In this document: positions 3,827-57,794 of the stretch, piece after piece | Position numbering within the stretch: position 1 is the first letter of the stretch | Layout of the letters: each line of letters opens with the position of its first letter | Position numbers and translations under genes: made by a program | NCBI RefSeq assembly: GCF_000332815.1 | Contig: NZ_AOFD01000014.1 | Span: 22,404 to 86,403, forward strand | Source of the DNA: Arthrobacter nitrophenolicus | GTDB lineage: Bacteria > Actinomycetota > Actinomycetes > Actinomycetales > Micrococcaceae | Reading direction: 5' to 3' | Length of the DNA: 64,000 nucleotides | The notes under the pieces: model-generated | Database searches by the model: none | What the model was told of the DNA's origin: nothing | What the model saw: the letters and a program-made list of their open reading frames with translations, nothing else

Positions 3827-5745
3827 ATGCAGGAAACCGCCAGGGTGGACGGAACGCCGCTGGAGCACGTGCTGGCAGCACTGTCCCGTGAACGGGGCAA
3901 GGGGCTGCTGCCGGACACGGCCTTCGACCGCCGCCTGGAGCGGACCCTGCCCCTGCTGGCGGATCTCTTCGGCTCCCTGTACAGCTCGCGGCCGGACTGG
4001 CAGGACCAGCTCGCAGCCCTCATTGTCCAGGCCGCCCGGTCCTGGCAGGAGCGGCCGGCCGGGCTGAAGGACCTGGACGCAGAGCGCGAAGGCGACAGCG
4101 GCTGGTTCCAGTCCAACGCCATGCTGGGCGGTGTCTGCTACGTGGACCGCTATGCGGAAAGCCTGGAGGGCGTCCGCGCCCGGATCCCGTACTTCAAGGA
4201 GCTGGGCCTGACCTACCTGCACCTCATGCCGCTGTTCCTGGCCCCCGAGCCGCATTCCGACGGCGGCTACGCGGTGTCCAGCTACCGGGAGGTCAACCCG
4301 AAACTGGGAACCATGGAGCAGCTGCGGTCCCTGGCGGCAGACCTGCGGAGCAACGGGATCAGCCTGGTGGTGGACTTTATCTTTAACCACACCTCGGACG
4401 AGCACGAGTGGGCCCGCAAGGCGGCTGCCGGCGATCCCGAATACAGCGGCTACTACTGGATTTTCCCGGACCGGACCATGCCGGACGCCTTCGAGCAGAA
4501 CGTGCGTGAGATCTTCCCGGAAAACCATCCCGGGTCCTTCATCCAGATGGCGGACGGCCGGTGGGTCTGGGCCACCTTCACACCTACCAGTGGGACCTGA
4601 ACTACTCCAACCCGGACGTCTTCCGCGCCATGGCCGGGGAAATGCTGTTCCTGGCGAACCAGGGCGTGGACATCCTCCGGATGGATGCCGTGGCCTTCAT
4701 CTGGAAGGAGCTGGGAACCTCCTGCGAGAGCCGGCCCGAGGCGCACACCCTGCTCCGCGCCTTCAATGCGGTGTGCCGGCTGGCGGCGCCGTCGCTGCTG
4801 TTCAAGTCCGAGGCCATCGTGCATCCGGACGAGGTGGCGCTCTACATCGACCCCGCCGAATGCCAGATTTCCTACAACCCGCTGCAGATGGCGCTGATCT
4901 GGGAGTCCCTGGCCACGCGGGACGCCTCGCTGCTGGCCCAGGCCCTGGAGCGGCGGCACAACATCCCGGCAGGCACGTCCTGGGTCAACTACGTCCGCAG
5001 CCACGACGACATCGGCTGGACCTTCGCGGACGAGGACGCCGCGGAACTGGGCATCAACGGCTTCGACCACCGCCGTTTCCTGAATTCCTTCTACGTCAAC
5101 CGGTTCCCCGGCAGCTTCGCCCGCGGCGTCCCCTTCCAGGACAACCCGCGCACCGGCGACTGCCGCATTTCGGGCACGACGGCGTCGCTGTGCGGCATGG
5201 AGGTCAACCCCGCCGAGGCGGTGGAACGGATCCTCCTGGCCCACTCGGTTGCCTTCAGCACCGGCGGCATCCCGCTGCTGTACCTGGGCGACGAGGTGGC
5301 CCAGCTCAACGACTACGACTATGCGCAGGAGCCAGGCCACGGGGAGGACAGCCGCTGGGTGCACCGGCCGCACTACCCGGCCGCGCAGTATGCCCGCCGC
5401 AACGACCCCGCCACACCGGAAGGCGCTGTGTACGCGGGGCTGAAGCGGATGATCGAAGTCCGCGGCGCCGCCCCTGAACTGGCCGGAACCACGCTGCTCG
5501 ATTTCAATACCCACAACCGCAGCGTCCTGGCGTACCAGCGGCCGGCAAGCGCGGCCGACGGCGGCCAGACGCGGGTCCTTGCCCTCGCCAACTTCGGCGA
5601 CTCCACCCAGCAGCTGCCAGCGGAAACCTTCGGCGGATACCTGCCTGCCGCCGTCGATCTTCTCTCGGAAGCCACGCTGGACCTGGGCGAAGGCGTCACG
5701 CTGCTCCCCCGCCAGTATCTCTGGCTGCGCGTCACGCCCGGCTAG
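3827..5745 (+). CDS. Amylosucrase (GH13), frameshifted near 4577
   Basis: Amylosucrase builds alpha-1,4-glucan from sucrose and releases fructose. Both halves are clear. The first (start MQETARVDGTPLEHVL, ribosome site AGGAAG) carries DGGYAVSSYREVNP and VDFIFNHTSDEHEWA. The second carries the nucleophile motif DILRMDAVAFIWKE, the acid/base FKSEAIVHPDEV and the third acid VRSHDDIGWTF. They are in different frames. Reading ACCTTC-ACACC at about 4577-4582, one C is missing; restoring it gives WATFHTYQWDLNY, the expected family sequence, and a 639-aa enzyme of normal length. A GTG at 3767 is a less likely start. The lesion is either a real null mutation or a sequencing error, and I favour error because similar single-base losses recur in the window. 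Confidence 0.88.
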
Positions 5746-5796
5746 CACCGGCGCCCGTTTTCCCAACCGGGGGCGGGCCGTGAAACCATACGGATC

Positions 5797-6651
5797 ATGC
5801 CCCAGAAGATTGCGTACCAGGGTGAGCCCGGCGCCAACTCCAATATTGCCTGCCAGCAGATGTTCCCGGACATGGAAAGCGTGCCGTGCGCGAGCTTTGA
5901 GGACGCCTTCGAGCTGGTGGCCAGCGGCGAGGCCGACCTGGCCATGATCCCCATCGAGAACTCCATTGCCGGCCGGGTGGCGGACATCCACGTCCTGCTG
6001 CCGCAGTCCAACCTGCAGATCGTGGGCGAATACTTCCTGCCCATCCACTTCGACCTGCTGGGCATTCCGGGCAGCACCATCGAGGGGGCCACCGAGGTGC
6101 ACAGCCACATCCACGCCCTGGGCCAGTGCCGGCGCCTGATCCGCGAGGCCAGCCTGCGCCCGGTCATCGCCGGCGACACCGCAGGATCCGCCCGGGAAGT
6201 GGCCGAGTGGAACGATCCCCGCAAGCTGTCCCTGGCTCCCCCGCTGGCCGCACAGATCTATGGCCTCGAGGTGCTGGCGTCCCGGGTGGAGGACGATCCC
6301 TCCAACACCACCCGGTTCGTGGTCCTGGCACGGGAAAAGGAACTGCCGGCCCGGGACGAACTTCCCGGACCGGCAGTCACCAGCTTTGTGTTCCGCGTGC
6401 GCAACGTCCCGTCAGCGCTGTACAAAGCACTGGGCGGTTTCGCCACCAACGGCGTGAACATGACCCGGCTTGAGAGCTACATGGTGGGCAACGAGTTCGC
6501 CGCCACCATGTTCATGGCCGACGTCGAAGGCCACCCCGAGGACCTGCCACTGAAGCTGGCACTCGAGGAACTGGACTTCTTCACCACCGAGGTTCGGATC
6601 CTGGGCGTCTACGCCGCGGCCGACTACCGCGCGGCGGCCGCCACGGCCTGA
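5797..6651 (+). CDS. pheA: Prephenate dehydratase
   Basis: Converts prephenate to phenylpyruvate, the committed step of phenylalanine synthesis. The 284-aa protein has an N-terminal catalytic domain beginning IAYQGEPGANSNIACQQMFP, with IPIENSIAGRV and the substrate-handling SNTTRFVVLAR motif at about residues 168-178. A C-terminal ACT regulatory domain follows (VTSFVFRVRNVPSALYKAL, then GVNMTRLESYMV), where phenylalanine normally binds for feedback inhibition. It lacks a chorismate mutase domain, as usual in actinobacteria. Its last 28 bp overlap the 3-prime end of the convergent flavoprotein gene, so no intergenic terminator exists between them. Confidence 0.95.
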   Translation: MPQKIAYQGEPGANSNIACQQMFPDMESVPCASFEDAFELVASGEADLAMIPIENSIAGRVADIHVLLPQSNLQIVGEYFLPIHFDLLGIPGSTIEGATEVHSHIHALGQCRRLIREASLRPVIAGDTAGSAREVAEWNDPRKLSLAPPLAAQIYGLEVLASRVEDDPSNTTRFVVLAREKELPARDELPGPAVTSFVFRVRNVPSALYKALGGFATNGVNMTRLESYMVGNEFAATMFMADVEGHPEDLPLKLALEELDFFTTEVRILGVYAAADYRAAAATA

Positions 6652-13569: not shown

Positions 13570-14354
13570 ATGCTGGAGCCGACGACGATTGAGGCCATCG
13601 CGGACGAGCTGGTGGAAGCCGGCCGGACCCGCACCCCTGTTCCCCTCCTGACGGCCCGGTACCCGGGCATGACCGTGGAGGATTCCTACGCCGTGCAGCA
13701 GTTGTGGCGGCGCCGCAACGAGGAAGCCGGCAGGACCCTGGTGGGGCGCAAGATCGGCCTCACGTCCAAGGCCATGCAGGCCGCCACGGGCATCACCGAA
13801 CCGGACTACGGCGCCATCTTCGATGACATGGTCCTGGACACCGGCTGCTCGGTCCAATGGGACCGCTACACGCACCCGCGGGTGGAGGTGGAGCTGGCGT
13901 TCGTCCTCAAGGACGGGCTCAAGGCCCCGGCGTCACCATCTTCGATGTCCTGAAAGCCACCGACTACGTGGTCCCGGCCCTCGAGATCCTGGACTCCCGG
14001 ATCGAGATGGAGGGCCGGACCATCGTGGACACCATCTCGGACAACGCCGCGATGGGCGCCATGGTCATCGGCGGGAACCCGGTCAAGCCGGACGCGGTGG
14101 ACCTGCGCTGGGTCTCCGCCATCCTCTACAAGAACCAGACCGTGGAGGAAACCGGCGTGGCCGCCGGCGTCCTGGACCACCCGGCCAACGGCGTCCACTG
14201 GCTGGCCAACAAGATCGCAGCGCACGGCGACTCCTTGAAGGCCGGGGACATCATCCTGGCCGGCTCGTTCACCCGCCCCATGTGGGTCTACAAGGGCGAC
14301 ACCGTGCACGCCGACTACGGACCCCTGGGGAGTGTCACATGCCGCTTCGAATAG
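13570..14354 (+). CDS. hpaH: 2-oxo-hept-4-ene-1,7-dioate hydratase, frameshifted near 13923
   Basis: This FAH-family hydratase adds water to 2-oxohept-enedioate before aldol cleavage. The first 115 or so residues ([20 protein letters not shown], then [18 protein letters not shown]) are in one frame. The rest ([20 protein letters not shown], then [19 protein letters not shown], ending SVTCRFE) is in another. At AAGGCCCCGG, about 13921-13926, one G is missing; restoring it gives [14 protein letters not shown] and a normal 261-aa enzyme. All other genes of the operon are intact, so a sequencing error is likelier than a real knockout of the pathway. The 3-prime end overlaps hpaI by 16 bp. Confidence 0.9.
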
Positions 14355-16779: not shown

Positions 16780-16841
16780 GTCCCCGTGGCGCGCGCCCCG
16801 GGGCTCTGGCGATCCCCGGGGTGTGCGGGCAGGATGGATGG

Positions 16842-17672
16842 ATGGCGCAGCACCTGGACATTCCGCCGTACTTTTACGGCGAGCTGATCAGGACCACGGC
16901 CCGCGTGGTCACCTGGAACGTGTGGGGGCTGTACGGCCCCTGGCAGGAGCGGGAAGCGGCGATAACTTCCACGCTGCTGGAGGCAAGGCCTGATCTTCTT
17001 GTGCTGGCGGAGTCCTGGTCAAAGGGTGACGACAGCCAGTCCGCGAGGCTGGCCGGCCCCCTGGGGCTGCCGTACCACGCCTTCACCGGGGTTCCGGCGC
17101 AGGAGGACGAGTCAGCACTCTCGGGGGTTGCGGTCCTGTCCAGGTGGCCCGTGGCCGATGCAGCGGGCTTAAGCTTTGGTGCGTTGCGGGTGCAGTACGT
17201 CCGTGTGGACGGCCCGCGTGGACCAATCCAGGTGTACGGAGTGGTGATGGACGCGTGGTGGCTTGACGAAAGCCAGGCACGGCAGGATGCGGTCCGCGGA
17301 CTGATCGCCCACCTGCATGCGGCACAGGATGAGCGGACTCCCCTGGTCGTGTGCGGGGACTTTAACGCCGATCCCGACAGCGATGAAATGCGCCTCATGA
17401 CGGGCCGTGCGGCAGCGCCGGTTCCCGGTTTGTCCTTCTACGATGCCTGGGACGTGGCGGCACCGGGCATGACGGGCAGCACGTGGTCCAATGCCAATCC
17501 AGGGGCAGCCCAGCTCTTGTGGCCGGACCGGCGGATCGACTATATCTTCACCGCCGCACCCCGGCGGGGCGGAGCCGGGCATCCGCGGGCAGCAGCCCTG
17601 CTCGGCACCACCCCGGTGGCCGGCATCTATCCGTCGGACCACTATGGGCTTCAGGCCGACATCCGGTACTAG
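16842..17672 (+). CDS. Endonuclease/exonuclease/phosphatase-family protein
   Basis: A 276-aa metal-dependent phosphoesterase of the DNase I-like fold. Motifs in order are VVTWNVWGLYGPW, the metal-binding Glu in LLVLAESWS, the CGDFNADPDSDEM loop and the closing SDHYGLQADI catalytic histidine. There is no signal peptide or membrane segment. Family members include nucleases and sugar/lipid phosphatases, so the substrate is not assignable. ATG at 16842 was preferred over the GTG at 16821 because the homologous region begins soon after it. It is not obviously linked to either flanking catabolic operon. Confidence 0.85.
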   Translation: MAQHLDIPPYFYGELIRTTARVVTWNVWGLYGPWQEREAAITSTLLEARPDLLVLAESWSKGDDSQSARLAGPLGLPYHAFTGVPAQEDESALSGVAVLSRWPVADAAGLSFGALRVQYVRVDGPRGPIQVYGVVMDAWWLDESQARQDAVRGLIAHLHAAQDERTPLVVCGDFNADPDSDEMRLMTGRAAAPVPGLSFYDAWDVAAPGMTGSTWSNANPGAAQLLWPDRRIDYIFTAAPRRGGAGHPRAAALLGTTPVAGIYPSDHYGLQADIRY

Positions 17673-17721
17673 ACGCTGAAATTTGTTCAGCATATTAGCC
17701 ATCAGCCAGTATAGTGAACGA

Positions 17722-18774
17722 ATGACTTCCTCTCTTACAGTCGCGATCGCTGTACCCCTCGAAGCCGAGCTGGTGGAGCAGATCCGCGCCGTCGACCCTT
17801 CCGTTACTGTCCGCTACGAGCCGGACCTCCTCCCACCGGAGCGGTTCCCCGCCGACCACTCCGGCGACCCCGCGTTCAAGCGAACCCCCAACCAGGAAGA
17901 ACGCTACTGGGCCATGCTCAACAGCGCGCAGGTGCTGTACGGCTTCCCCAACGAAAGTCCTGCCGGTCTTGCCCGCATCGCCCGCGAAAATCCCCACCTG
18001 CAGTGGATCCACGCGATGGCAGCAGGCGCGGGCGGGGCCGTCAAGGCGTCAGGCCTGGACCAGGAGACCTTGCAGAAGTTCAGGATCACCACATCGGCAG
18101 GCGTCCATGCCCTGCCGCTCGCCGAATTCGCAGCGCTGGGGATCCTCAACGGCTTCAAGCGGAGCGCGGAACTGGCCCGGGACCAGGCCGCCAAGATTTG
18201 GCCGGACCTCCGGATTCCCACCCGCCTCGTCAACGGCTCCACCCTGGTGGTCACGGGACTGGGCGAGATCGGACTGGAGACGGCACGGATTGCCAGGGCG
18301 CTGGGAATGAAGGTCAGCGGGACCAAACGCTCAGTGGAACCCATCGACGGCATCGACCATGTGGTGGACAACGCCGGCCTGCCGGGCCTCCTGGCCACGG
18401 CCGATGCGGTGGTCAATACGCTGCCCGGCACGGCATTCACCGAGAAGCTCTTCAACCGGGAAGTCTTCGCCGCCATGAAGCCCGGGACGGTCTTCGTCAA
18501 CGTGGGCCGCGGCACCGTCGTTGACGAGGAGGCACTGCTGGAAGCCCTGGACAACGGCCAGGTCAGTTACGCCTGCCTGGACGTTTTCGCCATCGAACCC
18601 CTCCCCCAGGACAGCCCCCTGTGGGAGCACCCCAAGGTGATGGTTTCCCCGCATACCTCCGCCCTCAGCGCCGCGGAGAACCGCCTCATTACCGAACGCT
18701 TCTGCAGCAACCTGCGGACCTTCCTCGACGGCGGCGACCTCCCCCACCTCGTGGACACGGTCCACTTCTACTAA
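17722..18774 (+). CDS. D-isomer-specific 2-hydroxyacid dehydrogenase
   Basis: A 350-aa NAD(P)-dependent oxidoreductase. The nucleotide-binding segment reads LVVTGLGEIGLETARIARALG (GxGxxG) at about residues 174-194. The catalytic Arg region is AVVNTLPGTAFTEKLFN to KPGTVFVNVGRGTVVDEEAL. The acid/His pair is in DVFAIEPLPQDSPLWEHP and VSPHTSALS. The start at 17722 (MTSSLTVAIAVPLEAELVE) is preferred over an earlier ATG at 17683, which lies in the putative promoter. It heads a plus-strand run with an FAH protein and an IclR regulator. This suggests reduction or oxidation of a sugar-acid or keto-acid intermediate; the exact substrate is unknown. Confidence 0.88.
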   Translation: MTSSLTVAIAVPLEAELVEQIRAVDPSVTVRYEPDLLPPERFPADHSGDPAFKRTPNQEERYWAMLNSAQVLYGFPNESPAGLARIARENPHLQWIHAMAAGAGGAVKASGLDQETLQKFRITTSAGVHALPLAEFAALGILNGFKRSAELARDQAAKIWPDLRIPTRLVNGSTLVVTGLGEIGLETARIARALGMKVSGTKRSVEPIDGIDHVVDNAGLPGLLATADAVVNTLPGTAFTEKLFNREVFAAMKPGTVFVNVGRGTVVDEEALLEALDNGQVSYACLDVFAIEPLPQDSPLWEHPKVMVSPHTSALSAAENRLITERFCSNLRTFLDGGDLPHLVDTVHFY

Positions 18775-18805
18775 ACCCGCCGGCCGAAGCACGATCAGGA
18801 GATCC

Positions 18806-19543
18806 ATGCGCATCGCACGCATCAAGACAGCAGAAGGCGCCCGGCATGCAGTGGAGCGGGACGGGACATGGCACCACATTGTTGACCCGTTCGCGGAGCC
18901 CCTCAGCTACACGGGGCACACCACCCCGCACGCCGACGCCGTATTCCTCGCCCCGGTCCGGCCCGCGGTGGTGCTTGGAATCGGGCACAACCGGACACTG
19001 AACGACCATCCGCTGCCCATCCAGGCCTGGCATAAGTCCGTGCACACCCTCGCGGATCCCAACGATCCGGTCGTCGCGGCCCGGGACCGCGGCACGGTCA
19101 ATGTGGAAGGCGAACTCGCGATGGTCATCGGGAAACAGGCGAAGGACCTGACGCCCGGCAACGCGCTGGAGCATGTCCTCGGCTATACCTGCGTCAATGA
19201 CGTGACCAACGCGGACCAGGGCCTGGTGGATGAACGGAATTTCCAGGGCAAGGCCGGCGTGAACTACACGCCCCTTGGCCCGTGGATAGAAACAGACATC
19301 CCGGATCCGGACAGCGTGGGCATCGATGTGATTGTCAACGGGACGGCACGGGCCAACTCCGGGACGCACAACCTGCCCTCCTCAGTGGTGGAGTGCCTTG
19401 TGTACGTCACGTCCTGGCTGACCCTGGAACCCGGCGACGTGCTCATGACAGGTGCTCCCGGGACGGCAGTGGCCGTTCAGCCGGGCGACCACGTGGAGAT
19501 TATGGTGGAGCGGATCGGGATCCTGTCCAACAGGATCTCCTGA
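18806..19543 (+). CDS. Fumarylacetoacetate hydrolase (FAH)-family protein
   Basis: A 245-aa FAH-fold enzyme. Visible are VVLGIGHNRTLNDHP at the domain start, the metal-binding acidic residues in NVEGELAMVIGKQAKDL and CVNDVTNADQGLVDE, and the closing PGDVLMTGAPGTAV motif. Relatives hydrolyse or decarboxylate 2,4-dioxo acids (acylpyruvases, 2,4-diketo-3-deoxy sugar-acid hydrolases). Coming 31 nt after a 2-hydroxyacid dehydrogenase and before an IclR gene, it probably acts late in a sugar-acid or aromatic-acid route. The specific reaction is not determinable here. Confidence 0.88.
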   Translation: MRIARIKTAEGARHAVERDGTWHHIVDPFAEPLSYTGHTTPHADAVFLAPVRPAVVLGIGHNRTLNDHPLPIQAWHKSVHTLADPNDPVVAARDRGTVNVEGELAMVIGKQAKDLTPGNALEHVLGYTCVNDVTNADQGLVDERNFQGKAGVNYTPLGPWIETDIPDPDSVGIDVIVNGTARANSGTHNLPSSVVECLVYVTSWLTLEPGDVLMTGAPGTAVAVQPGDHVEIMVERIGILSNRIS

Positions 19544-19609
19544 CCCTGCCTGCCGCCTTCGGGTTAATGCACGGCTTCGGCGCGATGAGAAGCGCCCTCT
19601 ATGATGGAT

Positions 19610-19631
19610 GGTGTTCAGTCACATGAACACC
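19610..19631. promoter_or_regulatory. Perfect dyad operator upstream of iclR-type gene
   Basis: GGTGTTCA and TGAACACC form perfect 8-bp arms around 6 bp, ending 33 bp before the IclR start codon. Closely related half-sites occur ahead of the MHS transporter (20533-20550) and the hydroxyacid dehydrogenase (TGTTCAGCATA at 17684-17694). This fits autoregulation by the IclR protein. Confidence 0.6.
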
Positions 19632-19664
19632 GCTCGTCCTGCCGCGGCAACCCGAAGGAGAATC

Positions 19665-20462
19665 ATGGCCGATTCCCGCAACCCAGGTTCATCAGACAAC
19701 CAGGGCACCGCTTCCCCAGCCCCCGCCGTGACCCGGGCGGCTGCCGTCCTGGATGCGCTGGCCTCCTCCGCCACCGGCCGCCTCACGCTCAGCGACCTTT
19801 CGCGTGAAGTAGGCATTCCCAAGTCGTCGACGTCCAACCTGCTGCTGGCGCTGGAGGAAGCCAGGCTCATCAGCCGCCAGGGCAGCGAGTTCACCCTGGG
19901 CCGCAAGCTGGTTGAGCTTGGCGCGGCCTACCTTGGCCGCCTGGATGAGGTGCAGGAGTTCTACCGCTACTGCGAGCAGGCCCCCGTCCTCTCCGGCGAA
20001 ACCGTTCGCATCGCCATGCTTGACGGTTTGAACGTCATCTACCTCGCCCGCTACGAGGGGCACCCCGCGGTGCGCCTGACGTCGAATATCGGCGACAAAA
20101 TGCCCGTCTCGCTCTGCGCGGTGGGCAAGGCACTGATCGCGCGGCTGCACGACCATGACATCGAGGAGCTCTTCCCCGACGACGCCGAGCTGCCCGTGCT
20201 GACGCCTAAGTCGCTGCGCACGGGTGCGGAATTCAAGGCCCAGCTGCGGACCATCCGCGAACAGGGCTACGCCTTCGAGGACGAGGAGTCCACCACGGGC
20301 GTGGTCTGCCTTGCCGTTGCCGTCCCCACCCGGGGAGCCCACGGCCCCAGCCTTGGCCTGTCCGTGACGGCCCTCAAGGCCACCTACACCCCGGAGCAGG
20401 GCGCCCAGATGGTCAAGGAACTCCAGGAACTGGCCCACTCGCTGGGCAATCCCATGGGCTGA
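19665..20462 (+). CDS. IclR-family transcriptional regulator
   Basis: A 265-aa regulator. The N-terminal winged helix (about residues 22-85) contains AVLDALASSATGRLTLSDLS and VGIPKSSTSNLLLALEEARL. The C-terminal IclR effector domain contains YLARYEGHPAVRLTSNIGDK, SLCAVGKALIARL and EQGYAFEDEESTTGVVCLAV. The ATG at 19665 follows GAAGGAG at ideal spacing; an in-frame GTG at 19608 would overlap the dyad operator. It lies between the FAH gene and the MHS transporter, and its likely operators occur before three local genes. Activator versus repressor cannot be told. Confidence 0.92.
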   Translation: MADSRNPGSSDNQGTASPAPAVTRAAAVLDALASSATGRLTLSDLSREVGIPKSSTSNLLLALEEARLISRQGSEFTLGRKLVELGAAYLGRLDEVQEFYRYCEQAPVLSGETVRIAMLDGLNVIYLARYEGHPAVRLTSNIGDKMPVSLCAVGKALIARLHDHDIEELFPDDAELPVLTPKSLRTGAEFKAQLRTIREQGYAFEDEESTTGVVCLAVAVPTRGAHGPSLGLSVTALKATYTPEQGAQMVKELQELAHSLGNPMG

Positions 20463-20532
20463 TCCCGCCCGCCGCGGGGATTTTCCCGTCACAAAGTCCA
20501 CACCCTTGCCGTTTGTTCAACTTGCTGTATTG

Positions 20533-20550
20533 TGTTCAGCATAGTGATCG
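20533..20550. promoter_or_regulatory. Second candidate IclR-type site before MHS transporter
   Basis: TGTTCA-N6-TGATCG at 20533-20550 matches the dyad at 19612-19629 in its left arm and spacing, with two differences in the right arm. A further TGTTCAA lies at 20514-20520. The site is 72 bp upstream of the transporter start. Confidence 0.45.
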
Positions 20551-20621
20551 ACGCAACAGGGTGTCGTTGCTATCCCACCACCAGGCCAACGTGGGCCTGG
20601 AGTGCGTTTAAGGGAGTTACT

Positions 20622-21971
20622 GTGACAACTCGTACTAAATCACCGCAGATTGAGGCGGGCGGCGCCGTCGTCGAACCGGAACAGCTGCGAAGGGCAACTC
20701 TTGCCAGCTCCGTGGGGTCAGCCCTCGAATACTACGATTTCTACATCTACGGCCTGGCGTCAGCGCTGATCTTCGGCCCCCTGTTCTTCTCCCCCCTGGG
20801 TGAGAGCGGCGCCGTCATCGCCTCCTTCGCAACCTACGGCGTCGGCTTTGCCGCAAGGCCGTTCGGCGGCGTGGTTTTTGGCTACATCGGAGACCGTTTC
20901 GGCCGCAAGATGGTGCTGATCCTCACCATCGGCCTGATGGGCATGGCGAGCTTCGCCATTGGCCTCCTGCCCACGTTTGAACAGGCGGGAATGCTCGGTG
21001 CCGTCCTACTGGTGGCCCTGCGCATCCTCCAGGGCCTGGGAGCCGGCGCCGAGCAGGCGGGCGCCACCACGCTGATCTCCGAGGTGGCCCCGCCCCGCCG
21101 TCGTGGTTTCTTCGCTTCGCTGCCTTTCGTGGGCATCCAGCTCGGCACCCTGCTCGGTGCCGGCACGTTCGCCCTGATGGCCCTCGCGGACAAGGAGGTC
21201 CTGCAGGGCTGGCTCTGGCGGGTGCCGTTCCTGGCCAGCGTCATCCTGATCGTCATCGCCGTCTTCATCCGGCTGCGGCTCAAGGAAACCCCGGTGTTCC
21301 AGGAGCTTGAAAAGCACAAGGCCGTGGTCAAGAACCCTGTGGGCCAGATCTGGAAGCACTCCAAGAAGAACGTGCTTGTCGGCATCGGCCTGCGGATGGG
21401 CGAGAACGGCAACTCATCGGTCTACTCGGCGTTGCTGGTCTCGTTCATCAGCCTTCCGGCAGGCGTCTTCCCGGGAGACAAGTTCATTGGTCCCACCGGC
21501 CTGCTGATCGCCGCCGGCTGCGCGGCCGTCATGGTGGTCGCTTTCGGTGCCCTGTCCGACCGGTTCGGCCGGGTGCCCGTCTACCGCTACGGCGCCCTCT
21601 TCCAGGCCCTCATTGCACTGCCGGCCTTCTACCTGGTCACGCTGGGCAACCCCGCCCTGGTATGGGCAGTCATGGTGGTGGGCATCGCCCTTGGCGTGCA
21701 GTCCATGCTCGGCCCGCAGTGCGCCATGCTGCCCGAGCTTTTCGGTTCCCAGCACCGGTTCACCGGCGTGGCCCTGAGCCGTGAACTTTCGGCGGTCCTG
21801 GCCGGCGGCTTCGCCCCGATGATCGGCGTTGCCCTGCTCGCCGCAACCAACCACTCCTGGTTGGTTCCCGCGCTGTACTCGCTGGTCCTGGCAACAATCT
21901 CCTTCATCACCACGTTCTTCACACCCGAAACGAACGGGCGCGACCTGGTGGTGGTGGAGGACGCCAGGTAG
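20622..21971 (+). CDS. MFS transporter, metabolite:H+ symporter (MHS) family
   Basis: A 449-aa inner-membrane protein with about 12 hydrophobic segments. MHS-family landmarks are VGSALEYYDFYIYGLASALIF in the first helix, ASFATYGVGFAARPFGG, the loop GYIGDRFGRKMVL between helices 2 and 3, LQGLGAGAEQAGATTLISEV, and a second-half loop GALSDRFGRVPVYRYG. This family imports small carboxylates, betaines and aromatic or sugar acids by proton symport. GTG at 20622 follows AGGGAG; earlier in-frame starts lie in the promoter. Position after the IclR gene and before three dehydrogenases suggests that it brings in the substrate they oxidise, plausibly a hexonate. Confidence 0.92.
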   Translation: MTTRTKSPQIEAGGAVVEPEQLRRATLASSVGSALEYYDFYIYGLASALIFGPLFFSPLGESGAVIASFATYGVGFAARPFGGVVFGYIGDRFGRKMVLILTIGLMGMASFAIGLLPTFEQAGMLGAVLLVALRILQGLGAGAEQAGATTLISEVAPPRRRGFFASLPFVGIQLGTLLGAGTFALMALADKEVLQGWLWRVPFLASVILIVIAVFIRLRLKETPVFQELEKHKAVVKNPVGQIWKHSKKNVLVGIGLRMGENGNSSVYSALLVSFISLPAGVFPGDKFIGPTGLLIAAGCAAVMVVAFGALSDRFGRVPVYRYGALFQALIALPAFYLVTLGNPALVWAVMVVGIALGVQSMLGPQCAMLPELFGSQHRFTGVALSRELSAVLAGGFAPMIGVALLAATNHSWLVPALYSLVLATISFITTFFTPETNGRDLVVVEDAR

Positions 21972-21982
21972 CAGTCCCTGAA

Positions 21983-22022: not shown

Positions 22023-22074
22023 CGTCAGCAGCCCAAGCACTCCCCACATCCCACAGGTCACCAAAAGGTTGAAC

Positions 22075-35255: not shown

Positions 35256-35270
35256 CGAACACCTCCGCTG

Positions 35271-36240
35271 CTAGAGCCGGGCCTTGGCGGCCAGGCCCTC
35301 ACGGACGTCCGCACCGGCTGTGGCGTCGGCAAAGGCCTTGACCGCGGCTTCGGCTTCCTTGTTCAGATTCTTCGGAACCGCGACGTCGATGGTCACCAGC
35401 AGGTCGCCGGTCACCTTCGAGGTCTTCACGCCCTTGCCCTTCACCCGCAGGGTACGGCCCGACGGCGTCCCCGCCGGAACACGGACCGCACCTTGTCGCC
35501 GTCGATGGTGGGCACCTCGATGTCGGCACCCAGCGCAGCTTCCGGGAAGGTGACGGGGACATGGATCCGCAGGTTGTCGCCGTCGCGCGTGTAAAACGGA
35601 TGGGGCTGGACGGAGACGGACACCACCAGGTCGCCGTTGCCGGCGGGGCTTGGCTGGCCCTTGCCGCGGACGCGCACTTTCTGGCCGTCCTTGATGCCGG
35701 CCGGAACCCGGACGTCGATCACTTCACCGCTGGGTTCCCGCAGGCCGATGGTGGTGCCGCGGATGGAACCGGCAAAGGAAATGCTGGTGGAGGCGGTACG
35801 GTCCGCGCCCTTCTGCGGGGCCCGCTGGAAGCCGGTCTGGCCGAAGCCGCCGCCGAACAGGTCGGCGAACTCGGGCGGGATCCCGCCCGCGGCTGGGTTG
35901 AACCCGCCCGCATGCCGGCCCGTATTGCCGGTGAAGAGGCCGCCGAACAGGTCCTCGAACCCGCCGTTGCCGGCGCGGCGCTGCCGGGGGCGAACCGGGC
36001 ACCGCCACCCATGGCACGGATGGCGTCGTACTGCTGGCGTTCCTCGGGATCGGACAGCACCGAGTAGGCCTCGGAGATGTCCTTGAACTTCTTCTCGGAG
36101 GCAGTGTTTCCCGCGTTGGTATCAGGGTGGTGCTCGCGGGCCAGCTTCCGGTAAGCCTTCTTGATATCGGCGTCGGAAGCGTCCTTGGCAACACCAAGGA
36201 TCTTATAAAAGTCCTTGTCCACCCAATCCTGGCTAGCCAA
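35271..36240 (-). CDS. dnaJ: Chaperone DnaJ, two frameshifts near 35980 and 35487
   Basis: The co-chaperone that stimulates DnaK. The J domain is intact ([20 protein letters not shown], then [10 protein letters not shown] with the HPD triad). After GGGARFAPG the frame changes near 35971-35990, and the expected Gly/Phe-rich linker ([16 protein letters not shown]) and CTD-I ([20 protein letters not shown]) lie in the next frame. Another change occurs near 35485-35488 (GTGCGG followed by TCC, one G missing) into [20 protein letters not shown], ending AKARL. Two restored bases give a 323-aa protein of the zinc-finger-less CbpA/DnaJ1 type. TTG start with AAAGGAAACGCCA upstream. An essential-class operon gene with two lesions strongly suggests sequencing errors. 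Confidence 0.9.
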
Positions 36241-43178: not shown

Positions 43179-43378
43179 GCCTGCGGGGACAACGAATTCT
43201 GGGCCGAAGCTTATGCCGTGCGCGGCGAGGACGTTGTCATTGCCAAGGCCGGAAGGCCGGTTGCACGGCTGGTCAAGATCGAACGGCCCCACAAGCGCGA
43301 ACTGGGCTTCCTCGGCCCCCTCCACATCCCCGATGACTTCTATGAGCCGTGGACGGATGACGAGATGGGAATTGACGG
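43179..43378 (+). pseudogene. Remnant Phd/YefM-type antitoxin, N-terminus missing
   Basis: Translation in the frame following the methyltransferase stop gives VRGEDVVIAKAGRPVARLVK and then LGFLGPLHIPDDFYEPW, the C-terminal half of a Phd/YefM or VapB-like antitoxin that precedes PIN toxins. The N-terminal DNA-binding half is absent, replaced by about 13 unrelated residues after the methyltransferase stop. There is no stop before the toxin in this frame; losing one G at ATGGGAATTGA (about 43366-43375) would put the natural TGA at 43373. So it is either truncated by recombination or a short antitoxin starting at GTG 43218. Confidence 0.65.
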
Positions 43379-43798
43379 GTGCTGCAGCTGCTGCTGGACA
43401 CCCATGTGTTCCTCTGGGCACTCGCCGAGCCCAAGAGGCTCTCAATCAAAGCCAAAAATGCGATCACCAAACTTGAAAACCAGGTCTTCGTTTCGCCGGT
43501 CACCGCCTATGAGCTCTCCTACAAGCACCGGCAGGGAAGACTGCCGGCCGGAGCGGCGATCGTCTCCAGTTTTGGCCGGCAGCTTTCACACCTCTACGCC
43601 GCTGAAATCGGCATCAGCGCCGACCATGCCCTTGCCGCCGGCCAGCTCGACTGGGACCACAAAGACCCCTTTGACCGGATGCTGGCTGCACAAGCCATGG
43701 TGGAAGGCTTCACCCTCGTCACAGCAGACGAAAACATCCAGGCGTACGGCCCCGTAGCACCCTGTGGTGACCCCCGCCACCGGCCCCCTGCCGCGTAG
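43379..43798 (+). CDS. PIN-domain toxin (VapC-like)
   Basis: A 139-aa PIN-domain ribonuclease-type toxin. The acidic catalytic set is visible: D7 in LLLDTHVFLWAL, E45 in TAYELSYKH, D96/D99 in HKDPFDRMLAAQA and D117 in LVTADENIQAYG. The start is GTG at 43379, immediately after the antitoxin remnant. The last 12 residues are a proline-rich extension beyond the usual end. All active-site residues are kept, although the partner antitoxin looks damaged, so either the antitoxin fragment still neutralises it or expression is low. Confidence 0.87.
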   Translation: MLQLLLDTHVFLWALAEPKRLSIKAKNAITKLENQVFVSPVTAYELSYKHRQGRLPAGAAIVSSFGRQLSHLYAAEIGISADHALAAGQLDWDHKDPFDRMLAAQAMVEGFTLVTADENIQAYGPVAPCGDPRHRPPAA

Positions 43799-43807
43799 GA
43801 TTGACAG

Positions 43808-48449: not shown

Positions 48450-49924
48450 CTACTGAACCGTCGCGGTCAGCCGGGCCACGTTATCCACGTAACGGGCCGC
48501 GAACGGACGGTTGCGCCAGACGGGAAGCTTAAGCTCGTGCGAGATGTCCCGGTAGGTGTCCTCCACCGCGCGCATCTTGGTGACGATGTCCTCGCCCAGC
48601 AGCATCACGGACACCTCGAGGTTCAGCGAGAAGGAGCGCATGTCCATGTTGCTGGAACCCAGAACGGCCACCTCGTCGTCGATGGTGAAGTGCTTGGCAT
48701 GGAGGACGAACGGGGCCTTGTAGAGGTAGATCCGGACGCCCGCCTCCAGCAGTGCCTCGTAGTAGGACTGCTGGGCGTGGTGGACCAGGAACTGGTCGCC
48801 CTTCTCGGAGACGAAGAGTTCCACGTCCACGCCGCGCTGGGCGGCAGTGGTGATGGCGTACAGCAGCGAATCGTCCGGCACGAAGTACGGGCTGCAGATG
48901 GAGATGCGGTGCTGCGCGGAATAGATGAGCGTGTTGAAGAGGCGCAGGTTGTTCTCGGTGATGAAGCCCGGGCCGCTGGGCACCACCTGCGCGGTGACGT
49001 TGCCCGGGTGCGGGTTCGCCGGCAGCTGCAGCTGGTGCTCCAGCGACTCGTCGGTTTCGCTCAGCCAGTCGGTGGCGAAAACGACATTCAGGGTGGTGAC
49101 GATCGGTCCACGCAGGCACGCCATCAACTCCACCCACTCCCGTCCGGCCTTGCGGTGGCGGGGGTTGTTGTAGGAGGGCTCGATCAGGTTCTGGGAACCG
49201 GTGAAGGCGATTTCGCCGTCGACCACCATGATCTTGCGGTGGTTCCGGAGGTCCGGCCGGCGCCACTGGCCATGGATGGGCATGAGCGGCAGCATCCGCT
49301 TCCACTGGATCTTGCCCGCCCTGAGGCGCTTGAGGAGCTTCCTGTAGCCCTGGACCGGAGGGTGCCGATGTGGTCGAACAGCACGCGCACTTCCACGCCG
49401 CGTTCGGCCGCCTCCTCCAGCGCGGTGAGCAGGTCGTCCGTGATGTGGTCGGTGCTCATGATGTAGAACTCCGCGTTGACGAACTTCTTCGCCTTCCGCA
49501 CGGCTTCGGTCATGGCGAGGATGGAGTCCGGGTACCCGGGGATGAGGTCAACCGAGTTGCCGTCCACCATGGGCAGGGATCCCAGCCGGCGGTTCAGCTC
49601 CGCTGCGGAGGTCACCCATTCGGGCCCCGGATAGTGGCTTTCGACGTCGGCGAGCGAGGAGATGCCGGCCCGGACCCTCTCGTTGACCTGCTGCTGCTGC
49701 TCGCGGCGCCGGCTGGAAAGCCTGAAGTTTCCGAACAGCAGGAACAGGACAATTCCCACGAAAGGCACAAAGAAGATACCCAGAAGCCACGCCATCGCCG
49801 TGGTGGGGCGGCGGTTTCCGGGAATGATGCCCACGGCGAGCACCCTGATCACCAGGTCGGCGACGCCGAGCAGCACCACCACCCACATCGGTGCGGTGCC
49901 GGCAAGCGAAAATGGCCACAACAA
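48450..49924 (-). CDS. cls: Cardiolipin synthase, frameshift near 49355
   Basis: A phospholipase-D-family membrane enzyme. N-terminal membrane segments are MWVVVLLGVADLVIRVLAVG and TAMAWLLGIFFVPFVGIVLF, then FVNAEFYIMSTDHITDDLL. Both HKD motifs are visible, NHRKIMVVDGEIAFTGSQN and LHAKHFTIDDEVAVLGSSN. The frame breaks after VLFDHIGTLR at 49354-49358, where one G is missing; restored, it continues VQGYRKLLKRLRAGKIQWKR and gives about 491 aa. The start is probably TTG at 49924; an ATG at 49888 is the alternative. It overlaps nothing but is convergent with the PabB fusion (3-nt gap). Confidence 0.9.
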
Positions 49925-52412: not shown

Positions 52413-52666
52413 ATGGCACATTCGCAGTTCGATATTTTTCTCCAAGAAGCCACCTACCTGGACCAAACCTCCGAACACGTCCTCGATCGCGACCGCCTGT
52501 ACGGGCTCTACACCAGCTGGTGCTTCATCAACCAGCAGCCGCTCAGTCCGGAGGACAGCTTCTGGGCCGCCATGCGCGACAGGATCAGTCCGGATCGCAG
52601 CGGCCTTCACATGAAGGGCCCCGCAGCCACCGACTACATCATGGCCAGCTACCCCGGCTGGTCTGA
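52413..52666 (+). CDS. Small conserved-looking hypothetical protein, frameshift near 52658
   Basis: An 84-aa acidic/aromatic protein if repaired: MAHSQFDIFLQEATYLDQTS, RDRLYGLYTSWCFINQQPL, MKGPAATDYIMASYPG. As read it continues to 52787 with a proline-rich, compositionally foreign tail that runs straight through a terminator hairpin (52694-52736). One missing C at CCCGGC-TGGTCTGA would end the protein LV at a TGA at 52664-52666, just before that hairpin, which is what I prefer. No family recognised; AAGGGAAGC-type ribosome site upstream. Confidence 0.7.
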
Positions 52667-52693
52667 GCAGGACCAGCCCCAGGGACATCAAGG

Positions 52694-52736
52694 GCGGCGT
52701 GAACCAAGGGCTGCGGCCCCGGTTCACGCCGCTTTT
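52694..52736 (+). terminator. Intrinsic terminator after the 52413 gene
   Basis: A perfect 12-bp stem GCGGCGTGAACC / GGTTCACGCCGC (52694-52705 with 52721-52732), a 15-nt loop, then TTTT. It is well formed on the plus strand. Confidence 0.85.
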
Positions 52737-52773
52737 CCATGCCTCGAAAAGCCTTCGACGCCGGGCCCGTCTC

Positions 52774-55227
52774 CTAGGTGGGAATGATCCGGAAGAGGAA
52801 CTTCGTCCGGACCATGACCCACAGCAGCCCCAGCACCGCCGCATAGGCTGCCGTGTTCAGCAGGACGTTCTCCTGCTGCAGGGCCGGGATGTTCGCCACC
52901 ACGGCAATCAGCACCACGTGCATGATGAACACGTAGAGCGTGGCGCGGCCCAGCGGAATCAGGAACCAGCCCAGGGCCCGCTGCACGGGCTTCCAGTACG
53001 CGGTGAGGAAGGCATAGGCCGCGACCACCAGGACCAGGACGTTGAGCAGCCGGCCGGGCGCCAGGTACGTCCTCGCAAAGAGCGCGTCGTAGACCGTCCG
53101 GTACACGGTGTCCGCGACGAGCGCCAGCCGGACGTCGAAGCCGTTGGCCAGGTAGGGATTTCCCCAGGACAGGAAGGCCAACAGGAAAGCGAGCGCCGTG
53201 CAGGCGGCCACCACCCAGGTCCGCGCCGAGAGCCAGGCGACGATGCTGCGCCGGTGGAATCCGGCAACCAGGCCGAGCACGAACAATACCTGCCACACGA
53301 GCAGCGGGAACGAGTCCTCGAACTGCGACGGCAGGAGCCGGAAGCGCGTAGTGGCGCCGACGGCGTAGACCGCCAGGGTGCCGGCCAGCACCCACACGGC
53401 CTTGCCCCGGTTGAGGGCAGCAAGAATGAAGGGGCTGGCCAGCAGCAGCACCACGTACAACCCCATCACATTGAACTGCCACGGGCCGAACTGCAGCAGC
53501 AGGATGGCGGGAAGCACCTGGGGCGGCACCGGGAACTGGAAGAGCGACTCCATTCCTGCATAGAGGTCGTAGGTGCGTCCGGCGCCGTCGTGCCCTGCCC
53601 CGCCGGTCCCTTGGTCCACGAAGGTGGTGAGCGCGTCGGTACGGAACACCGGCAGCAGGGAAGCCAGGAAGACACCCACCAGGACGATCAGCGCCGTCAG
53701 GTAGAGCTTGCCGGCGCGCCGTGACGTCAGGTCCACGACCGTTCCAAAATCGTCCTTCACCCGTGGCCCGTACACCATGCCCACCACCAGGCCGGAGAAG
53801 AGGACAAACAGCTCGGCACCCGAAACGAAGCCCACCGCCTCCTGGGTGAGCAGCTGGAACAGGGACGTCATGCCCAGATGGTTGACCACCACGAACACAA
53901 TGGCCAGTCCGCGCAGCAGGTCCACGCGGGAATCCCTGCCGGACGGGTCCGTATAGCTCCAGGCCGTTGCGGCGTTGACGCGGCGCGGAATCTGCCACAG
54001 AGCCACAAGGAGGATGACGAGCGCGGCCCCCACGGTCCAGGCTGCAGGCCCGGCCAGCGTGTTGGCCCGGACATAACCGCTGCCGCCGGCGGACACTTCC
54101 GTGACGGGACCGGTCACCAGGGGCGAGGCCTCCAGCCGTTCCAGCGCCGCCCGGGCAACCTCCGGGCTGCCGGTCAGCAGCCAGTCGATGCTGGCCACGC
54201 CGGTGTCCCTGGTGCTGGTGCGCTCGTCCCAGACCACCGCGGCCGTCCTGCCAAACTCCGCCGAGGTGGCTGTGCCTACCACCTGGTCCCACCAGCCGGT
54301 CTTGATCTCAGCTTCGGATGCGCCGCCGGAGGCCGGGCTGTAGAAAGCGGCGGTCTGCAGCAGGAACGGTTTGTTCCGCCCTTGGGCATAGGTGGCGTAG
54401 AAGTTCTCGCCTCCTGAAGCCGTCAGCATCTCCGCCAGCTCGCCGGCGCGCGGAAGGGTATTGACGGCCGCGCCGCCGGCAGTGTCGTCGTGGAAGGCCG
54501 TCAGGCCAACCCAGTCCACGGCGTCATCACCGGGATAGTACGGTTCGTAGGCGCTGTCGGACCCGTCCCAGGCGCCGTCGCCGTTTGTATCCAGCAGTTC
54601 GAACCCGTCGCTGCCGGGAGCCGGGGCGTTCCGGTTCCGGTCAAAGGGGTAATCCTTGCCCAGGAACGGCTCCCAGACCATGACTGTCCGGCCGTCGCCG
54701 GAATCCTTGAACGCCGCGGACACTGTCCGGAACGCCTCCCGGTACGCGGCCGGCTGCTGGCCCCACTCCACCCAGCCGGCGTTCATGTCCGGGGCAAACC
54801 GCACCAGCACCTGGCCCTGGAACTGTGCGGTCAACCGGCGGATTTCCCGAGCGAATGATCCGGCAGCCGCGGCGTCGATCTGGTCCAGCGGCACGGTGGG
54901 CTTGACCGTGAGCATGGCGTGGGACCCCTGAAGCGATGACTGTTCAAGGAAGCCCTTGATGTCGTTCTGCTCGGAGGACCGGTACGGAAAGGCGATGTCG
55001 TGTCCAAAGACAGCCGGCGACGCTCCCAGCCGCTCGGCAAACCCCGCGGCAGTGTCCTCGCCCCATTCCAGGACGACGCCGAGCATCGGCTCCCCTGCAT
55101 CCGGGGCGGGTTCGGCCGCCCGGGCCGGCCCCGCCGACAGGACCGCTGCCACACATGCAACAACAAGTGCGGCAAGGAACGCCCAGGCCAGGCGGAGGCG
55201 GCAGGGCGCGGCTGTTCGCATGTTCAA
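52774..55227 (-). CDS. GH26-like / OpgC acyltransferase fusion membrane protein
   Basis: An 817-aa protein with a signal peptide (LAWAFLAALVVACVAAVLSA) and an extracytoplasmic domain of about 350 residues resembling family-26 glycoside hydrolases: DMNAGWVEWGQQPAAYREAF and TVMVWEPFLGKDYPFDRN, including a likely catalytic Glu. The C-terminal half has about ten membrane helices with OpgC/acyltransferase-3-type features: SRVDLLRGLAIVFVVVNHLG, LFVLFSGLVVGMVYGPRV, RATLYVFIMHVVLIAVVANI. It may modify a surface polysaccharide, trimming or binding with one half and acylating with the other. The active residues need alignment to confirm. Confidence 0.8.
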   Translation of the reverse strand: MNMRTAAPCRLRLAWAFLAALVVACVAAVLSAGPARAAEPAPDAGEPMLGVVLEWGEDTAAGFAERLGASPAVFGHDIAFPYRSSEQNDIKGFLEQSSLQGSHAMLTVKPTVPLDQIDAAAAGSFAREIRRLTAQFQGQVLVRFAPDMNAGWVEWGQQPAAYREAFRTVSAAFKDSGDGRTVMVWEPFLGKDYPFDRNRNAPAPGSDGFELLDTNGDGAWDGSDSAYEPYYPGDDAVDWVGLTAFHDDTAGGAAVNTLPRAGELAEMLTASGGENFYATYAQGRNKPFLLQTAAFYSPASGGASEAEIKTGWWDQVVGTATSAEFGRTAAVVWDERTSTRDTGVASIDWLLTGSPEVARAALERLEASPLVTGPVTEVSAGGSGYVRANTLAGPAAWTVGAALVILLVALWQIPRRVNAATAWSYTDPSGRDSRVDLLRGLAIVFVVVNHLGMTSLFQLLTQEAVGFVSGAELFVLFSGLVVGMVYGPRVKDDFGTVVDLTSRRAGKLYLTALIVLVGVFLASLLPVFRTDALTTFVDQGTGGAGHDGAGRTYDLYAGMESLFQFPVPPQVLPAILLLQFGPWQFNVMGLYVVLLLASPFILAALNRGKAVWVLAGTLAVYAVGATTRFRLLPSQFEDSFPLLVWQVLFVLGLVAGFHRRSIVAWLSARTWVVAACTALAFLLAFLSWGNPYLANGFDVRLALVADTVYRTVYDALFARTYLAPGRLLNVLVLVVAAYAFLTAYWKPVQRALGWFLIPLGRATLYVFIMHVVLIAVVANIPALQQENVLLNTAAYAAVLGLLWVMVRTKFLFRIIPT

Positions 55228-55454: not shown

Positions 55455-55550
55455 TGGGGAGTAATGAGTACCGGCGCCAAGCCCTGACTGGCCGGTCGGC
55501 AACCCTCCTTCCGCGGCGGGGTGCCTCAGGTGAATACTCGGCATATCGAC
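55455..55550 (+). ncRNA. SAM riboswitch, SAM-IV-like, leader of methionine unit
   Basis: The leader has the arrangement of actinobacterial SAM-IV aptamers: closing stem GAGTA (55466-55470) with TACTC (55535-55539), then GCCAAGCCCTGACTGGCCGG arm, the GGTCGGCAACCCTCC core, a CCGCGG-GGGGTGCC arm and a CAGGTGAA segment before the closing strand. It lies about 40 nt before the first gene of a run ending in metZ, so SAM binding would shut off sulfur assimilation into homocysteine. The part of the interval before it (55228-55454) shows no other clear feature. Confidence 0.75.
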
Positions 55551-56267: not shown

Positions 56268-57475
56268 GTGACCTTCAATAACGACGCCGCCGGCTGGAAC
56301 CCCGACACCCAGGCCGTCCGCGGCGGGCTGGATCGCACCAACTTCCAGGAAACCTCCGAAGCGGTCTTCCTGAACTCGGGCTTCGTGTACGAATCCGCCG
56401 CCGCTGCGGAACGCGCCTTCACCGGCGAGGACGAGCGCTTCGTCTACTCCCGGTACGGCAACCCCTCCGTGGCAACCTTCCAGGAGCGGCTCCGGCTGCT
56501 CGAGGGCACGGAGGCATGCTTCGCCACTGCGTCCGGCATGTCCGCCGTCTTCACCGCCCTGGGCGCCTGCTGGCTGCCGGGGACCGCGTGGTGGCCGCCC
56601 GTTCGCTCTTCGGTTCCTGCTTCGTCATCCTGAATGAGATCCTGCCGCGGTGGGGCGTGGAGACGGTGTTCGTGGACGGCCCGGACCTGGAGCAGTGGCG
56701 CGCCGCCCTGTCCCAGCCCACCACCGCCGTCTTCTTCGAGTCCCCGTCCAACCCGATGCAGGAGATCGTGGACATCGCCGCGGTCAGCGAACTCGCGCAC
56801 GCCGCCGGGGCCACCGTCGTCGTCGACAACGTCTTTGCCACTCCCCTGCTCCAGCGCTGCGGCCAGCTGGGCGCGGACGTCATTGTCTACTCGGGCACCA
56901 AGCACATCGACGGCCAGGGCCGGGTGATGGGCGGTGCCATCCTGGGCACCAAGGAGTACATCGAGGGCCCGGTCAAGCAGCTGATGCGCCACACCGGCCC
57001 GTCGCTGTCGCCGTTCAACGCGTGGGTGCTGACCAAGGGCCTGGAGACCATGGCGCTGCGTGTCAACCACTCTTCCGCCACCGCCCTCCGGCTCGCTGAA
57101 TGGCTGGAGCAGCAGCCTGCCGTGAGCTGGGTGAAGTACCCGCTGCTGAAGTCCCACCCGCAGTACGACCTCGCAGCGAAGCAGATGCGTGCCGGCGGCA
57201 CGGTGCTCACCCTGGAACTTGCCCCCTCCGGCGGCCGCTCGGGCAAGGAAGCCGCCTTCGCGCTGCTGGACGGGCTGCGGATCATCGACATCTCCAACAA
57301 CCTGGGCGACTCGAAGTCCCTGATCACGCACCCGGCCACCACCACGCACCGCGCGATGGGGCCGGAGGGGCGGGCTGCCATCGGGCTCAGCGACGGCGTG
57401 GTGCGCCTGTCCGTCGGGCTCGAGGATGCCGACGACCTGATCCGCGACCTCGAACAGGCCCTGAAGCAGATCTAG
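56268..57475 (+). CDS. metZ: O-succinylhomoserine sulfhydrylase, frameshift near 56566
   Basis: A PLP enzyme of the Cys/Met gamma family that makes homocysteine from O-succinylhomoserine and sulfide. The N-terminal part has DTQAVRGGLDRTNFQETSEA and ERFVYSRYGNPSVATFQERL, the latter the substrate-binding YxRYGNP. Then the frame breaks at GGCGCC-TGC (56563-56568), where one C is missing. The repaired sequence continues LLAAGDRVVAARSLFGSCFV, with the PLP lysine in VIVYSGTKHIDGQGRVMGGA, 402 aa in all. GTG start directly at the rhodanese stop. Succinyl versus acetyl substrate is inferred from MetZ-like motifs. Confidence 0.92.
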
Positions 57476-57794
57476 CTTTTATCCCGCGGTACATCGTCCG
57501 GCTGGAGCTCCAGCCGGACGTCCACGGCGTCGCCCGCCCTGATCCGCGCTTTGTCCCGGACAGCCTTCTTGACGGGCAGCAGGTATGAGCCATCTTGTTG
57601 TCCGGGAAGATGGACGTCTCCCAGCGGTGGCCGCCGATCTCCACCGCGACCTTGACCGAGCCGAAGGCCTTGTTCCCGGCTTCGCTTTGCTCCGCAATGT
57701 CGTCCGCCACGTCCGGCGGCAGCGTGAGGAAGTGCCATCCCGCTTCGCCGGGATAGAGCCAAAGCTCGGCATGGAAAGAGTACGACGGCGCCAC
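57472..57794 (-). CDS. DUF1905-domain protein, frameshift near 57593
   Basis: A 107-aa protein when repaired. It begins APSYSFHAELWLYPGEAGWH after a GTG, has FLTLPPDVADDIAEQSEAGN and KVAVEIGGHRWETSIFPDNK. Then it needs one more base to continue DGSYLLPVKKAVRDKARIRA, ending DDVPRDKS. This is the DUF1905 pattern (beta-barrel, HKD-less, unknown function). One missing base near 57593 is the same kind of lesion seen elsewhere. Its 3-prime end overlaps the metZ stop by 4 bp, convergent. Confidence 0.82.

What the first reader, a model, noticed from the sequence alone, without database searches (positions are those of the whole stretch)
4577..57600. Recurrent single-base losses break at least nine genes in this window
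Amylosucrase (4577), hpaH (13923), dnaJ (35980 and 35487), dnaK (37055), MMPL exporter (40050), cls (49355), metZ (56566), the small 84-aa gene (52658) and DUF1905 (57593) each need one added base, and the 15276 dehydrogenase needs two; nearly all are in G/C runs. Restoring the base recovers the family sequence and normal length each time. Two hits in dnaJ and one in dnaK are implausible for a living cell. I conclude that the reference has systematic indel errors, so many apparent pseudogenes are artefacts.
Basis: partly seen in the sequence, partly recalled or inferred. Interest (0 to 1): 0.7.

Follow-up and report, generated by a model that had tools for sequence, protein, structure and literature searches.

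The report
Sequencing errors, not broken genes
Eleven genes in this stretch of a soil Arthrobacter genome are one or two bases shorter than in its relatives, as are the only copies of vital genes such as RNA polymerase elsewhere in the same assembly, so the losses are very likely Ion Torrent sequencing errors and the genes are likely intact in the living cell.

Summary
Eight sites are one base short (mod 3) against 5 of 5 relatives; 16427 is two short against 3 of 3 that cover it. The losses are genome-wide: strict single-base coding losses number 37 in 140,008 nt over three regions here, against 8 in 727,781 nt of five relatives counted the same way. They hit the only copies found of rpoB (twice), rpoC and rpsG, and also rplC and rpsH. 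Codon constraint downstream of breaks equals that upstream. A near-identical intact DnaJ is in the protein database. The assembly matches, to the base and contig count, Arthrobacter sp. SJCon, sequenced by Ion Torrent alone and assembled with Newbler. Shortened G/C runs are doublets and triplets, the published signature of Ion Torrent strand-asymmetric high-frequency indels. A rough extrapolation gives about 1,100 such errors genome-wide. An ordinary artefact, useful mainly as a warning about this type-strain draft.

The parts
3767..5745 (+). alpha-amylase family gene (reader: amylosucrase), read in two frames; one base short at 4579
   Evidence: 5 of 5 relatives; PF00128 profile 18-131 then 154-272 in the two pieces
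13570..14354 (+). hpaH (2-oxo-hept-4-ene-1,7-dioate hydratase), one base short at 13923
   Evidence: 5 of 5 relatives; intact protein of relative G169 passes TIGR02312
15132..16779 (+). aldehyde dehydrogenase family gene, two bases short at 16427
   Evidence: 3 of 3 covering relatives; PF00171 profile 1-351 then 351-460
35270..36240 (-). dnaJ-like gene, short at 35487 and at about 35976, read in three frames
   Evidence: 5 of 5 relatives at both sites; three frames seen; near-identical intact protein P0001
36915..38951 (-). dnaK, one base short at 37054, altering about the last ten residues and extending the frame into grpE
   Evidence: 5 of 5 relatives; one search shows the extra C-terminal residues match relatives in another frame or past their stop; NF001413
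39143..41607 (-). MMPL exporter gene, one base short at about 40050
   Evidence: 5 of 5 relatives; PF03176 in both pieces
   Evidence: 2 of 2 relatives that align across
48450..49924 (-). cls (cardiolipin synthase), one base short at 49354
   Evidence: 5 of 5 relatives; TIGR04265 profile 11-186 and 217-479 in the two pieces
52413..52787 (+). small gene (reader: 84 aa), one base short at about 52657, near its 3' end
   Evidence: 3 of 5 relatives; alignments of the other two stop at 52658
56268..57475 (+). metZ-like gene (O-succinylhomoserine sulfhydrylase family), one base short at 56566
   Evidence: 5 of 5 relatives; PF01053 profile 1-91 then 86-381; NF005870
57472..57810 (-). DUF1905 gene, one base short at about 57592
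   Evidence: the one relative that aligns across, G169; PF08922 profile 53-81 of 81 in one frame only

Best explanation
The genes in this window read as frameshifted because the assembly is one or two bases short at each site, and these missing bases are very likely Ion Torrent deletion errors carried into the Newbler consensus rather than mutations in the cell. Shown: site-specific losses relative to relatives, their genome-wide excess, their concentration in G/C doublets and triplets among conserved runs, hits in the only copies found of essential genes, and undiminished codon constraint downstream. Established by exact match of size and contig count: the assembly is the Ion Torrent-only, Newbler 2.5.3 draft of Arthrobacter sp. 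SJCon. Inferred: at these sites most reads undercall a short G/C run (the published strand-asymmetric high-frequency indel class), so the consensus loses a base despite 73x coverage. Inferred: the cell's genes are intact.
For: Private indels: -1 (mod 3) class 39 in 140,008 coding nt here against 16 in 727,781 nt in five relatives (odds ratio 12.7, p 2e-19); strictly one base lost against every covering relative: 37 against 8. Frame model: 59 events in 309,137 nt on 19 contigs here, 12 in 57,162 in the window, 9 in 357,574 in relatives, at one uniform rate over the stretches (p 0.23). rpoB in three frames, rpoC and rpsG in two, no other copies found; rplC and rpsH in two. Third codon positions hold 1,258 of 1,593 mismatches downstream and 1,216 of 1,550 upstream (31 of 39 rows). 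Conserved G/C runs shortened: doublets 8 of 8,174, triplets 8 of 1,198, against 3 of 30,315 and 2 of 4,542 in relatives (p 1e-7). Intact DnaJ P0001: 319 of 320 known residues identical. Platform: PMC3593328, whole text. Error class: PMC3623719, abstract and passages.
Against: The reads were not seen. Runs of four and five G/C are not shortened (0 of 201), though only 1.3 would be expected at the triplet rate (P of none 0.26), so rising error with run length is not shown beyond triplets. The 23S gene shows no loss against all five relatives and the authors' Sanger 16S matched the draft; both are short, multi-copy and expected to hold at most about one error. Relatives have a background of private frameshifts (28 rows of both classes in 727,781 nt), so a single site in a dispensable gene could be real. 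The frame model's -1 direction (52 of 59) is not evidence by itself: 8 of 9 events in relatives are also -1. Of the 39 rows, 8 rest on two relatives only, one (C33:42097) is an 8-base gain and one (~35976) is -7 against two relatives. The sources of P0001 were not shown by the tool.
Confidence: 0.97

Rival explanations
1. Genuine recent frameshift mutations: the strain is a mutator or a decaying lineage and these are true pseudogenes.
For: Very recent mutations would also leave downstream constraint intact; several window genes (hpaH, alpha-amylase, MMPL, cls) are plausibly dispensable.
Against: The only copies found of rpoB, rpoC and rpsG are broken at like density: C33 has 11 rows in 36,401 nt against 17 in 58,916 and 11 in 44,691 elsewhere. 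Among conserved G/C runs 16 are shortened and 1 lengthened. Relatives do not show it.
Confidence: 0.02
2. Classical long-homopolymer undercalling by the flow sequencer, rather than the high-frequency-indel class, made the errors.
For: Same platform; the rate rises from doublets (8 of 8,174) to triplets (8 of 1,198).
Against: 0 of 201 conserved G/C runs of four and five are shortened, but the sample is too small to exclude it (P 0.26). If true, the artefact verdict is unchanged.
Confidence: 0.2
3. The bases are truly missing and the cell restores the frame by slippage of polymerase or ribosome at each site.
For: Downstream codon constraint would be kept in that case too.
Against: No shared slippery motif was seen by eye beyond a G/C doublet or triplet, and nearly all such runs are unaffected; relatives have the longer run at the same places; a near-identical DnaJ is encoded intact; the known platform explains the data.
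Confidence: 0.003

Closest known systems
Ion Torrent PGM high-frequency indel (HFI) errors, strand-asymmetric subclass (Bragg et al. 2013, PMC3623719; abstract and passages seen)
   Same: Single-base deletions, dominated by C and G, mostly in homopolymers of length two to three; expected by those authors to give frameshifts in assemblies.
   Different: There measured in reads at about 1 per 1-2 kb of reference; here seen in a consensus at about 1 per 3.8 kb of covered coding sequence (37 in 140,008). Strand asymmetry could not be tested.
Frameshift artefacts of long-read-only or 454 assemblies (recalled, not from a call)
   Same: Many apparent pseudogenes caused by indel errors, including in essential genes.
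   Different: Recalled as concentrating in longer homopolymers; here doublets and triplets, and a different platform.

Membership tests
Ion Torrent strand-asymmetric HFI errors | Data come from an Ion Torrent instrument | tested here: met
   Size 4,389,620 bp, 142 contigs, largest 143.0 kb match PMC3593328
Ion Torrent strand-asymmetric HFI errors | Deletions dominate, of C and G | tested here: met
   Of 27 conserved runs that differ in length, 22 shorter runs are listed, 16 of them G/C; 5 are longer or otherwise (4 longer: 3 A/T, 1 G/C)
Ion Torrent strand-asymmetric HFI errors | Located in homopolymers of length two to three | tested here: met
   16 of 16 shortened G/C runs are doublets or triplets; none of 18,608 singles and none of 201 of length four or five
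Ion Torrent strand-asymmetric HFI errors | Indel seen mainly in reads of one strand | not testable with these tools
   No reads held
Ion Torrent strand-asymmetric HFI errors | Mostly not replicated between runs | not testable with these tools
   No second run held
Genuine pseudogenes | Essential sole-copy genes are spared | tested here: not met
   rpoB, rpoC, rpsG broken, no other copy found
Genuine pseudogenes | Relaxed constraint downstream of the break | tested here: not met
   Third-position share of mismatches 1,258 of 1,593 downstream, 1,216 of 1,550 upstream (31 of 39 rows); very recent mutations would look the same
Long-homopolymer undercalling | Error rate rises with run length beyond triplets | tested here: inconclusive
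   0 of 201 runs of four and five, 1.3 expected at the triplet rate

The most novel reading that the evidence does not exclude
The bases are truly missing at around a thousand G/C doublets and triplets, essential genes included, and the cell makes full-length proteins by genome-wide slippage at those sites.
Probability: 0.003. Interest if true: 0.95.

Novelty: not a real feature. Interest (0 to 1): 0.12.

Why it matters
SJCon is the type strain of Arthrobacter nitrophenolicus (PMC3563742, abstract), and this draft stands for its species in the genome set used here. At the measured excess about 1,100 single-base losses are expected genome-wide (37 in 140,008 against 8 in 727,781, scaled to 4,389,620 bases; a rough figure that assumes one rate everywhere). 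Roughly one gene in five would then look broken. Gene-loss, pseudogene and pathway-completeness statements drawn from this draft (for example on the hpa aromatic pathway or the chaperones) should not be trusted without resequencing. No paper in the held library contains both 'SJCon' and 'frameshift' (open-licence PubMed Central papers only).

Tried and rejected
Strict frame-model settings found only 5 window sites. Loosened settings found 12, of which 10216 and 43376 are not supported by relatives; 43376 is the overlap of a gene pair. A shared motif around the losses was looked for by eye in the contexts; nothing beyond a G/C doublet or triplet stood out, and it was not tested statistically. 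The 23S gene was uninformative: no base missing against all five relatives (four of five at 1786-1788), with about 0.8 expected. Indels outside coding sequence were listed but left out of the counts because relatives differ too much there. Position 55508 was dropped: three of five relatives have one more base and two do not, so it is not private. The apparent +1 near window 61700 (C14:84098) is in the '+1/-2' count, not among the 39; the differences near 8545 and 8760 lie by the 5' ends of genes and were not counted. Of the 39 rows, 8 were left out of the constraint test because the automatic ORF was not clearly coding or a flank had 60 or fewer compared positions; these include the dnaK and 43757 rows, and the filter itself favours third-position change summed over both sides. 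In one search relative G169 was the reference and so was never itself tested. In the relatives' counts this genome was among the comparators. Whether rplC and rpsH have second copies was not checked. One search gave no paper used; one search listed Bragg et al. first.
Full report
WHAT WAS CLAIMED.

THE OBSERVATION. The window is bases 22404-86403 of contig C14 of a 4,389,620-base assembly in 142 contigs. By GrpE the 80 kept relatives are Arthrobacter, Pseudarthrobacter and Paenarthrobacter. Of the 205 other species genomes of the genus searched, the best match over grpE-dnaK is 92% identical in nucleotides (ranked list, capped). Five close genomes are collinear with most of the window apart from about 16.8-32.7 kb. 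Against them 8 of the 11 listed sites are short by one base (mod 3) in 5 of 5 relatives, and 16427 by two bases in 3 of 3 that cover it. 52658 is supported by 3 of 5 relatives, 57592 by the single relative that aligns across. Family scans place the flanking pieces consecutively in one family for the aldehyde dehydrogenase, alpha-amylase, cardiolipin synthase and Cys/Met enzyme.

IS IT MORE THAN CHANCE? Each genome was taken in turn as query, and frame-changing indels private to it against all covering genomes (at least two) were counted in coding sequence. For the contig of the window (A), contig C8 (B) and the rpoB-ribosomal contig C33 (C), this genome has 17, 11 and 11 rows of the -1 (mod 3) class in 58,916, 44,691 and 36,401 covered coding bases; the five relatives together have 4, 7 and 5 in 351,904, 126,594 and 249,283. 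Together: 39 in 140,008 against 16 in 727,781 (odds ratio 12.7, p 2e-19). Strictly one base lost against every relative: 37 against 8; the two rows that fall away here are an 8-base gain (C33:42097) and the ~35976 dnaJ site, which is -7 against two relatives. The +1/-2 class is 5 here against 12 in the relatives; two of the five (window 16427 and C33:44019) are two-base losses. An alignment-free frame model over 19 stretches from 19 contigs gives 59 events in 309,137 coding bases, 12 in 57,162 in the window and 9 in 357,574 in relatives; counts per stretch fit one rate (p 0.23). Its -1 direction (52 of 59) is shared by the few events in relatives (8 of 9), so direction there is no evidence. 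The window is not special: the sampled assembly is affected throughout.

IS IT THE CELL OR THE SEQUENCE? On contig C33 rpoB is split into three frames and rpoC, rpsG, rplC and rpsH into two each, the pieces 95.8-99.7% identical in protein to the intact relative G169 (S8, L3 and S7 named). For rpoB, rpoC and rpsG the family searches found no other copy in the assembly; rpoB is open in 5 of 5 relatives. RNA polymerase and ribosomal protein S7 are indispensable (general knowledge), so the broken forms can hardly be what the cell carries. Downstream of breaks third codon positions take 1,258 of 1,593 mismatches, upstream 1,216 of 1,550 (31 of 39 rows). A search with the DnaJ pieces, X at the breaks, returned first an intact 323-residue protein, P0001, at 99% identity over 100% of the query; the next hit is at 95%. 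It agrees with 319 of the 320 known residues; its one difference and its own contig of 1,308 bases suggest an independent copy from the same or a very near species, but the tool showed no source for it.

WHERE IT COMES FROM. A paper search for Arthrobacter, 'draft genome' and '142 contigs' returned one paper. Its whole text (PMC3593328) describes Arthrobacter sp. SJCon: 4,389,620 bp, 142 contigs, largest 143.0 kb (C1 here has 142,953 bases), Ion Torrent only, 2,234,522 reads averaging 147.6 nt, 73.3x, Newbler 2.5.3 at default settings. SJCon is the type strain of A. nitrophenolicus (PMC3563742, abstract and opening).

MECHANISM. In conserved homopolymer runs (same length in G169 and at least two other relatives, with none differing), G/C runs are shortened in this genome in 0 of 18,608 singles, 8 of 8,174 doublets, 8 of 1,198 triplets (one by two bases), 0 of 167 of length four and 0 of 34 of length five; one doublet is lengthened. 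Relatives pooled: 7 of 70,416 singles, 3 of 30,315 doublets, 2 of 4,542 triplets, 1 of 575 of length four, 0 of 107 of length five (doublets and triplets together p 1e-7). A/T runs here: 2 of 15,215 singles, 3 of 2,794 doublets and 1 of 208 triplets are short, and 3 singles are lengthened. This does not look like the familiar failure of long homopolymers, though the 201 long runs are too few to exclude it. Bragg et al. 2013 (PMC3623719; abstract and passages) describe Ion Torrent high-frequency indels at about 1 per 1-2 kb of reference; 82% of the strand-asymmetric ones fall in homopolymers of length two to three, deletions of C and G dominate them, and the authors warn of frameshifts in assembly. 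I infer that such sites, where most reads undercall, passed into the consensus. Strand asymmetry cannot be tested without reads.

RESULTS AGAINST. The reads were not seen. The 23S gene has no base missing against all five relatives and the authors' Sanger 16S matched the draft, but both are short and multi-copy. Relatives show a background of private frameshifts (16 + 12 rows), so any one site in a dispensable gene might be real. Eight of this genome's 39 rows rest on two relatives. The dnaK break changes only about the last ten residues.

VERDICT. As biology the broken genes are very likely not real. Interest is low apart from the practical warning about this type-strain assembly.

Noticed in passing
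window 16800-32700: About 16 kb absent at this place from all five relatives compared, between the hpa-like region and the dnaJ-dnaK region; no supported frameshift was found in it, but relatives could not be aligned there.
   Followed up: partly
window 43200-43800: Toxin-antitoxin-like overlapping gene pair (by eye); two relatives have the same pair with an ATGA overlap, while here the upstream frame runs on past that point by substitution, not by an indel.
   Followed up: partly
window 55506-55508: One-base length difference shared by this genome with G052 and G055 but not with G026, G136 and G169, so natural variation rather than a private error.
   Followed up: yes
L196 (23S rRNA, contig C103), about 681-697: This genome has several extra bases in one stretch of 23S rRNA against all five relatives; probably a variable helix.
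   Followed up: no
   Followed up: no
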